Notes under the pieces: model-generated | The model's input: only the letters and a program-made list of their open reading frames with translations | The model's database searches: none | Told to the model about the DNA's origin: nothing | Assembly: GCA_031255315.1 (NCBI GenBank) | Contig: JAIRSS010000218.1 | Location: 1-16,610 of the forward strand | Length of the DNA: 16,610 bases | Reading direction: 5' to 3' | From: Spirochaetaceae bacterium | GTDB lineage: Bacteria > Spirochaetota > Spirochaetia > Treponematales > Breznakiellaceae | Program-made: the position numbers and the translations under genes | In this document: positions 15,719-16,573 of the stretch, piece after piece | Numbering within the stretch: the stretch's first letter is position 1 | Layout: each line of letters starts with the position of its first letter

Positions 15719-16573
15719 TTATTGGCTAATCTCCCCCCAGAACGCCGTTTCCCCGGTAAACAGCGCCCGTACCTGCTCTTTGGTCAAGCCGCTCAGAGGA
15801 TTCTCCCGGTTCACGATGACGGCGATACCGTCCAGAGCGATAACCGTACCGGTAAGCCCCTTTTGGACTTCGCTCTCCTTGATTTCCCTGGAGGCCATGC
15901 CGATGTCGCACACCCCGTCTATAACGGCGTTCATGCCCGTGGACGAATCGCTCTGCTGAATCTCGACGTCCGCGCCGCTGTTAATCCTCAGATACGCTTC
16001 TTTCAGCTTCTCCATGACCGGCGTAACCGAAGAAGAACCGGCGGCCACGATTTTGCCGGAGGCCCGGCTGCTGACAAAGGGGCCGGTATCCTCAATACGG
16101 ATATACCCGTTCTTTTCAATTACATCCTGCCCGTCCCTGCTCAGAATGTAGTTGATGAAATCCCGCGCCGGCTCGCTCACCGCGGCGGGTATCGCAATCA
16201 GGAAGGGCCGGGATATCCTATACGAACCATTGGCGACATTGGCGGCCGTCGCTTCAGCGCCGTCTATCCGCAGGGCCTTAACCGTATCGTTCAGGGACCC
16301 CAGGGAGATGTACCCCACGGCGTTTTTGTCCCCCGCAATGGTGGTCATCATAACCGCCGTACTGTTGGTGATTTCGGCGTTTACCGTGGTGTTGTCGGCT
16401 TTGTTCCCATCCAAAACCTCAAAGAGCTCGGTAAAGGCGCTCCGCGTACCCGAACCTTCTTCCCTGGAAACCACGTTGACGGCGGGGTTTGACCCCGAAG
16501 CCTGTTTTCCGCCGAGGGCCCACCCGTTCAGGGCCAAAAGGACCGCCATTGCCGGAATTAACGCATTCTTCAT
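15719..16573 (-). CDS. pstS: Phosphate-binding protein PstS with circularly permuted domain order
   Basis: This is the periplasmic phosphate receptor for the PstCAB importer, 284 residues. The signal peptide is [19 protein letters not shown] with small residues after it and no lipobox cysteine. The mature part is in swapped order. Residues 32-160 are the canonical second half: [16 protein letters not shown] (phosphate-binding loop), [29 protein letters not shown], then SRPFLIA and [22 protein letters not shown]. A short linker (161-173) leads to the canonical first half: [63 protein letters not shown] and [14 protein letters not shown] at the stop. In usual PstS the FTGE...W segment leads directly into [9 protein letters not shown]. 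A GGAGG site lies seven bases before the start. It heads the operon; its promoter is outside the window. Confidence 0.9.
   Translation of the reverse strand: [284 protein letters not shown]

What the first reader, a model, noticed from the sequence alone, without database searches (positions are those of the whole stretch)
15719..16573. PstS with its two halves in swapped order (apparent natural circular permutation)
Seen directly: the translated gene begins, after the signal peptide, with [11 protein letters not shown] and the GYISLG segment (second half of canonical PstS) and ends with [26 protein letters not shown] and LFTGE..W (first half). Known of the family: PstS normally runs AGSSSVTP first, with FTGE..W leading straight into N/[9 protein letters not shown]. 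The C-terminal end here (WGEISQ) and the N-terminal start ([13 protein letters not shown]) are exactly the two sides of that missing join, while residues 160-173 bridge the normal N- and C-termini. Inference: the fold is kept but the termini moved to the inter-lobe region. A two-lobed binding protein could change its hinge dynamics or its contact with PstCA. I have an impression that similarly ordered PstS-like proteins occur in some anaerobic Firmicutes, so it may be an under-described subfamily rather than unique.
Basis: partly seen in the sequence, partly recalled or inferred. Interest (0 to 1): 0.75.

Follow-up and report, generated by a model that had tools for sequence, protein, structure and literature searches.

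The report
Phosphate-binding protein with halves swapped
The phosphate-catching protein of this bacterium's phosphate pump is built in a rearranged order, second half first, yet it is predicted to fold into the normal shape; many gut bacteria carry the same version, and one relative already has a solved structure.

The parts
15719..16573 (-). pstS, permuted order B-A, 284 aa
16581..16585 (-). ribosome-binding site GGAGG
   Evidence: read from the sequence
16511..16573 (-). signal peptide, about residues 1-21; no cysteine, so no lipobox
   Evidence: read from the sequence; cleavage site not predicted by a tool
16094..16486 (-). half B (normally second), residues 30-160
   Evidence: HMM bounds 32-160; aligns to 1twy 141-276
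16442..16468 (-). phosphate-loop motif SREEGSGTR, residues 36-44; R37, E39, S41, G42, T43 align to E. coli PstS R135, D137, S139, G140, T141
   Evidence: which E. coli residues bind phosphate is recalled
16058..16093 (-). new linker joining the old C- and N-termini, residues 161-172, with the conserved aromatic F166
   Evidence: aromatic at that place in 469 of 478 distinct permuted proteins against 0 of 40 measurable ordinary ones
15722..16057 (-). half A (normally first), residues 173-284; S181/S182 and S210 align to E. coli T10/F11 and S38
   Evidence: HMM bounds 172-279
14758..15642 (-). pstC
   Evidence: TIGR02138 over cut-off
13889..14806 (-). pstA
   Evidence: TIGR00974 over cut-off
13113..13862 (-). 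pstB
   Evidence: TIGR00972 over cut-off
12466..13113 (-). phoU
   Evidence: TIGR02135 over cut-off
11658..12332 (-). PhoB-like response regulator
   Evidence: best NCBIfam match TIGR02154, under its cut-off
9964..11661 (-). PnpS/PhoR-like sensor kinase
   Evidence: best NCBIfam match NF046044, under its cut-off

Best explanation
The gene encodes the working phosphate receptor of this bacterium's PstSCAB importer, as a circularly permuted PstS. Shown: the gene order, the gene cluster, the intact half-domains, the conserved ligand positions, and a predicted fold that superposes unbroken on a solved protein of the same order. Inferred: it is secreted, binds phosphate between its two lobes, closes on it and hands it to PstC/PstA like an ordinary PstS. 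The chain simply starts and ends at a different loop. The loop between ...W and I.V.SRE.GSGTR was opened, and the old termini were joined by about 12 residues carrying a conserved aromatic residue. Because the cut lies in lobe II, the N-terminal end, and the lipid anchor where there is one, now hangs from lobe II. The trees suggest that the permuted form spread together with its own pump genes.
For: Order and completeness. Fold: AlphaFold model, mean pLDDT 82.6; 4h1x best by a wide margin, unbroken. Operon: a pump permease gene directly downstream in 78 of 79 checkable loci of 80, pstC being the first pump gene in all 80, and the window's order pstC-pstA-pstB-phoU-RR-HK in 43 of 80. Sole receptor: of 20 carrier genomes (picked from the 80 loci, completeness unknown), 14 have no other TIGR02136 match at E 0.001, one has only a 20.7-bit partial, two have distant matches under the cut-off, and three (all Streptococcus) have an ordinary PstS as well. 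Ligand positions are kept. In pneumococcus, deleting both pst operons (pst2 being, by gene name, the one with this kind of PstS) lowers phosphate uptake by about half in an unencapsulated strain, and either operon suffices at 1 mM (PMC4913102: abstract and passages). PstC and PstC/A/B trees show the permuted P1 operons as one group.
Against: Phosphate binding by a permuted PstS was not measured in anything I read. The window ends 37 bases upstream of the gene, so an ordinary PstS further upstream cannot be excluded, and no whole genome is held. The curated PstS model TIGR02136 scores it under its cut-off (190.1 against 206.6). E. coli Asp56 aligns to Ser228, but most ordinary relatives shown have Ser there too. 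Model confidence is low in parts of residues 210-227. Single Pst deletions in pneumococcus do not lower uptake at 1 mM, and at low phosphate Pst1, not Pst2, matters more.
Confidence: 0.93

Rival explanations
1. Evolution, reading 1: the permutation arose once, in an ancestor of both permuted families (P1, the window's, and P2), and was undone in a Brachyspira-like spirochaete order, leaving a scar at the remade join.
For: PstC+PstA+PstB place P2 with the Brachyspira-like operons (100/99) and reject one clade of permuted operons (p-AU 0.003); after Dayhoff recoding the grouping keeps SH-aLRT 98.6 and bootstrap 100. Those PstS have the ordinary order but a join of 39 residues without Trp in 19 of 19 distinct proteins; the 70 other distinct ordinary PstS in my set have 45-58 (46 in 58 of 70), with Trp in 70 of 70 (by pattern). 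They share P2's longer loop: 11 residues in 20 of 20 loci and in 76 of 117 P2, against 6 in 44 of 45 measured ordinary proteins. P1 and P2 share the cut site and the linker aromatic.
Against: The short join may be a plain deletion. The branches are long and the Brachyspira-like DNA is AT-rich (GC 0.23-0.31 against 0.51-0.55 for the two P2 loci). Only two P2 operons were available. PstS alone does not reject one clade (p-AU 0.30).
Confidence: 0.45
2. Evolution, reading 2: two independent permutations at the same loop, one in P1 and one in P2.
For: The same operon trees; it needs the same number of changes as reading 1.
Against: The identical cut site and the shared linker aromatic (469 of 478) would have to be convergent, and the short Brachyspira-like join stays unexplained.
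Confidence: 0.3
3. Evolution, reading 3: a single permutation with no reversal; the Brachyspira-like position is an artefact of long branches or of gene replacement.
For: PstS alone does not reject one permuted clade (p-AU 0.317 and 0.298), and the quick tree of half B puts all permuted forms on one side of a branch (support 73).
Against: The pump genes reject it, recoding does not change the grouping, and the loop-length character in PstS agrees with the pump genes.
Confidence: 0.25
4. The swapped order is an assembly error.
For: The window is a metagenome contig, and contigs that look chimeric exist in the databases for this very family.
Against: Isolate genomes (Streptococcus, Roseburia hominis, Blautia) and a crystal structure have the same order.
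Confidence: 0.01
5. It binds another anion (for example arsenate, sulfate, or a phosphonate) and is not the phosphate receptor.
For: Specificity was not measured.
Against: pst-phoU gene context and conserved ligand positions.
Confidence: 0.04

Closest known systems
Pneumococcal PstS2, SP_2084, PDB 4h1x
   Same: Same half order, unbroken alignment over residues 30-283, 42% identity, rmsd 1.9; named pstS 2, and pst2 is an operon of its own (PMC4913102, passages).
   Different: In an organism that also has an ordinary PstS1. The titles and passages I saw do not mention a permutation.
Ordinary PstS of Clostridium perfringens (4q8r, 4gd5)
   Same: Each half aligns at good score.
   Different: Halves in the order A-B; structure alignment covers one half only. 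That 4gd5 is from C. perfringens is partly recalled; its title is cut off in the listing.
TpMglB-2 (Tp0684) of Treponema pallidum
   Same: A naturally circularly permuted binding protein of an ABC importer, with relatives in treponemes and Gram-positive gut bacteria; shown to bind its ligand and to change conformation (PMC4990184: passages).
   Different: Glucose binder of another fold class (type I), cut elsewhere, needs a fourth lobe crossing; the PstS case keeps two (inference).
OpuAC of Bacillus subtilis
   Different: Binds glycine betaine; sequence identity 9-12%.

Membership tests
PstS, phosphate-binding protein of the PstSCAB importer | both PstS half-domains present and complete | tested here: met
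   TIGR02136, 2 stretches, E 4.8e-56; HMM coverage of the halves 1.0 and 0.99
PstS, phosphate-binding protein of the PstSCAB importer | passes the curated score cut-off of a PstS family model | tested here: not met
   TIGR02136 190.1 bits against a cut-off of 206.6; a linear profile scores a permuted chain in pieces. It passes PF12849, a broader model (110.7 against 27)
PstS, phosphate-binding protein of the PstSCAB importer | half order A-B | tested here: not met
   order is B-A
PstS, phosphate-binding protein of the PstSCAB importer | PstS fold | tested here: met
PstS, phosphate-binding protein of the PstSCAB importer | phosphate ligand residues | tested here: met
   R37, E39, S41, G42, T43, S210 aligned to E. 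coli R135, D137, S139, G140, T141, S38 (ligand list recalled); Asp56 is Ser228, as in most ordinary relatives shown
PstS, phosphate-binding protein of the PstSCAB importer | encoded with pstC, pstA, pstB, phoU | tested here: met
PstS, phosphate-binding protein of the PstSCAB importer | binds phosphate and delivers it to PstCA | not testable with these tools
   needs purified protein or a transport assay
Permuted PstS of the 4h1x kind | B-A order along one unbroken chain that superposes end to end | tested here: met
Permuted PstS of the 4h1x kind | same clade | tested here: met
   window and Streptococcus L040 in one starred clade 99/91; 4h1x itself was not in the tree
TpMglB-2-like permuted binding proteins (proposed type Ic) | type I fold, glucose/galactose binder | tested here: not met
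   best fold matches are PstS 4h1x and other non-type-I binding proteins (the class of these is recalled)

The most novel reading that the evidence does not exclude
Chain order in PstS is reversible: the protein was permuted once in an ancestor of families P1 and P2 and later un-permuted in a Brachyspira-like spirochaete order. There the join was remade from the shortened termini, leaving a join 7 residues shorter than the usual 46 and without the Trp found in all 70 other ordinary PstS examined; PstC and PstA are fused in the five operons looked at there. A natural protein that went A-B to B-A and back to A-B would, as far as I know, be new.
Probability: 0.4. Interest if true: 0.65.

Novelty: new member of a known kind. 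Interest (0 to 1): 0.45.

Why it matters
A core nutrient receptor exists in two chain orders in the same groups of bacteria and sometimes in the same cell (Streptococcus). That is a natural experiment on whether chain order matters for folding, export, anchoring and docking. The curated PstS model scores the window's protein in pieces and under its cut-off. If the order changed twice, this would be a case where a permutation and perhaps its reversal could be placed on an operon tree.

Tried and rejected
B-A-B and A-B-A proteins as duplication intermediates. Eight of the 238 proteins listed by two searches (the second seeded with one of them) have a third half: 5 B-A-B and 3 A-B-A. They would have been ideal missing links. 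But the B-A-B proteins P0030 and P0121 and a third protein, P0160, share the same first 252-256 residues and then run into three different tails, that of P0160 tRNA-synthetase-like by eye. All 8 come from the source 'ena', and none was seen in the 80 genome loci. I read them as chimeric assemblies of permuted and ordinary pstS genes. This is shown only in part: it rests on P0030, P0121 and P0160, and for the other six I have no such comparison. The DNA of those contigs was not examined.

Anchoring as the driver of the permutation (the suggestion made for TpMglB-2). Not supported as a general cause: the window protein has no cysteine in its signal region, and a simple lipobox pattern fails in 25 of 82 permuted ORFs of L001-L080 (some failures may come from ORF starts set too far upstream).

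Separate trees of each half were too short to settle the origin: half A needs 2 changes for P1 alone, half B 1. The PstS trees differ in detail.

Literature: ten searches over open PubMed Central papers. Mostly I saw listings only (in one search, 20 of 29 papers); no title or abstract start speaks of a permuted PstS. I looked at passages of the three papers that hold both the permutation words and PstS: all are about something else (phage genomes, statistics). Subscription journals and the 4h1x entry's own notes were not available, so this is no proof of absence.

Dropped rows: one search used 60 representatives of 516 distinct proteins, 59; one search left out 7 far or long-branch loci (L086, L103, L217, L152, L210, L211, L212); searches left out L279, 33 of 35 hand-picked loci had a usable PstC. 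A1 used 45 of 120 listed proteins, A2 30 of 120. In one search, 45 of 68 ordinary proteins and 95 of 117 P2 gave a usable loop length. An earlier count said 27 of 82 for the lipobox; the right number is 25. The join lengths counted some genes twice and missed 30 distinct ones; one search is the recount on distinct proteins.

Full report
What is there. The window is one metagenome contig (its own protein is listed with a longest contig of 16610), GC 0.596; PstS proteins 73-82% identical to it are labelled Treponema in public data (P0004, P0008, P0016). On the minus strand 9964-16573 runs a gene cluster: pstS, pstC, pstA, pstB, phoU, response regulator, sensor kinase. The pstS product begins, after a signal peptide without cysteine, with the half that is second in ordinary PstS and ends with the half that is first. 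Profile matches show the swap directly, as do the PDB sequence matches: 4h1x in one unbroken stretch 28-282; of the other ten sequences, eight in two stretches and two in one half only.

Is it real. Half-by-half HMMs built from the homologues classify 230 of 238 proteins listed by two searches as B-A, 5 as B-A-B and 3 as A-B-A (both lists are capped at 120 of 7996 hits, and the second was seeded with a B-A-B protein). All 120 proteins listed by a third search, seeded with a divergent member, are B-A. All 82 PstS ORFs in the 80 genome loci kept are B-A (the best 80 of 497), among them isolates of Streptococcus, Roseburia hominis and Blautia. The order is therefore natural.

Anatomy. In ordinary Bacillota relatives the join reads roughly ..W.EVGG.DAPI.VV.RE.GSGTR. 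In the permuted form the chain ends just after W and starts just before the V.SRE motif, so that loop was opened. The old termini are joined by a linker with an aromatic residue 12-14 positions before the GSSS motif in 469 of 478 distinct permuted proteins (of 480). None of 40 measurable ordinary proteins (of 72 distinct) has one there, and random three-residue stretches of permuted proteins hold an aromatic in 16% of draws. Aligned to E. coli PstS in rotated order, R37, E39, S41, G42, T43 and S210 fall on R135, D137, S139, G140, T141 and S38 (the ligand list is recalled). From class II binding-protein topology (established knowledge, not computed here) the cut lies in lobe II; lobe I becomes continuous and the number of lobe crossings stays two.

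Who has it. Genomes with a match at E 1e-48 or better, centre genome included: 9 of 249 Bacillota (10 of 299 read from the longer list), 9 of 247 Spirochaetota, 5 of 198 in the phylum of the Slackia genome, 1 of 148, the centre alone, in the phylum of the Desulfovibrionaceae genome, and 60 of 200 in the family of the Roseburia hominis genome. At that threshold the matches listed run across both halves. These are lower bounds, since only some candidates were scored. Of 20 carrier genomes picked from the 80 loci, 14 show no other TIGR02136 match; three Streptococcus have an ordinary PstS as well. A pump permease gene follows directly in 78 of 79 checkable loci; the exception, L036, has a second permuted pstS in between.

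How it works. Best reading: an ordinary phosphate receptor in another chain order. Function rests on context and on pneumococcus, where the operon that by name holds this kind of PstS (pst2) contributes to uptake, as seen on deletion of both operons (PMC4913102, abstract and passages). Single deletions had no such effect at 1 mM, and at low phosphate Pst1 mattered more. That paper calls the two transporters evolutionarily distinct; the word stem permut does not occur in its main text.

Evolution. The window's family (P1) is one clade, 99/91 in the careful PstS tree. A second family, P2 (117 distinct proteins in my set), is 100/100. PstS alone cannot tell whether they share one origin (p-AU 0.317; 0.298). 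Recoding amino acids into six classes keeps the grouping (SH-aLRT 98.6, bootstrap 100). PstS itself carries a matching mark: the loop after [IL][YF] is 6 residues to the Trp in 44 of 45 measurable ordinary proteins and in 283 of 329 P1. It is 11 in 76 of 117 P2 (9 in 16, 8 in 3; the other 22 were not measured reliably), and 11 residues precede the S[IV]SRED motif in 20 of 20 Brachyspira-like loci. Counted on an alignment of distinct proteins, the Brachyspira-like join is 39 residues in 19 of 19 and has no Trp; in the 70 other ordinary proteins it is 45-58 (46 in 58) and has a Trp in all 70. One permutation followed by reversal, with a scar, explains all of this; two permutations explain the trees but not the short join or the shared linker. 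No test run here separates these two, and long branches are a concern.

Verdict. The object is a member of a large, structurally solved but, in the open literature searched, undescribed permuted branch of PstS. Interest is moderate; the possible reversal is the part worth following.

Noticed in passing
L266, L267, L268, L269, L282: PstC and PstA appear fused into one ORF of 586-596 aa in the five Brachyspira-like operons looked at (fusion judged from length and from the missing separate pstA), next to a PstS of ordinary order with an unusually short join.
   Followed up: partly
L034 1514-2428; L036 394-1266 and 1455-2330: Second permuted PstS genes: a very divergent one in a Lachnospiraceae genome that also has a normal permuted copy, and a tandem pair in Anaerotignum.
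   Followed up: partly
L009, L032, L046, L064, L065 and others: Several Blautia and other Lachnospiraceae permuted PstS have a plain signal peptide without cysteine. How a monoderm cell keeps such a receptor at its surface is unclear.
   Followed up: no
P0030, P0121, P0160, P0021, P0104, P0143, P0212, P0214, P0215: Public protein databases hold odd PstS proteins (B-A-B, A-B-A, and one running into a tRNA-synthetase-like sequence), at least some apparently from misassembled contigs.
   Followed up: partly
window 3-4271: Minus-strand genes that look like a ribose/simple-sugar ABC importer: binding protein running off the contig start (3-674), two permeases (731-1699, 1696-2760) and an ATP-binding protein of 504 aa (2757-4271). 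Judged by eye from the translations only.
   Followed up: no
window 4281-9947: By eye: a possible L-fucose/L-arabinose isomerase-like protein (4281-5765, -), an AraC-type regulator (5702-6727, +), a galactokinase-like protein (7200-8594, +) and an N-acetylglutamate kinase/synthase-like protein with an acetyltransferase end (8610-9947, +). Not searched.
   Followed up: no
window 16457-16459 (residue E39): The position of E. coli PstS Asp137 is Glu in the window's closest relatives shown (SREEGSGTR) and Asp in others, Asp being the majority residue of the 45-row alignment. Asp137 is recalled as the hydrogen-bond acceptor that selects phosphate.
   Followed up: partly
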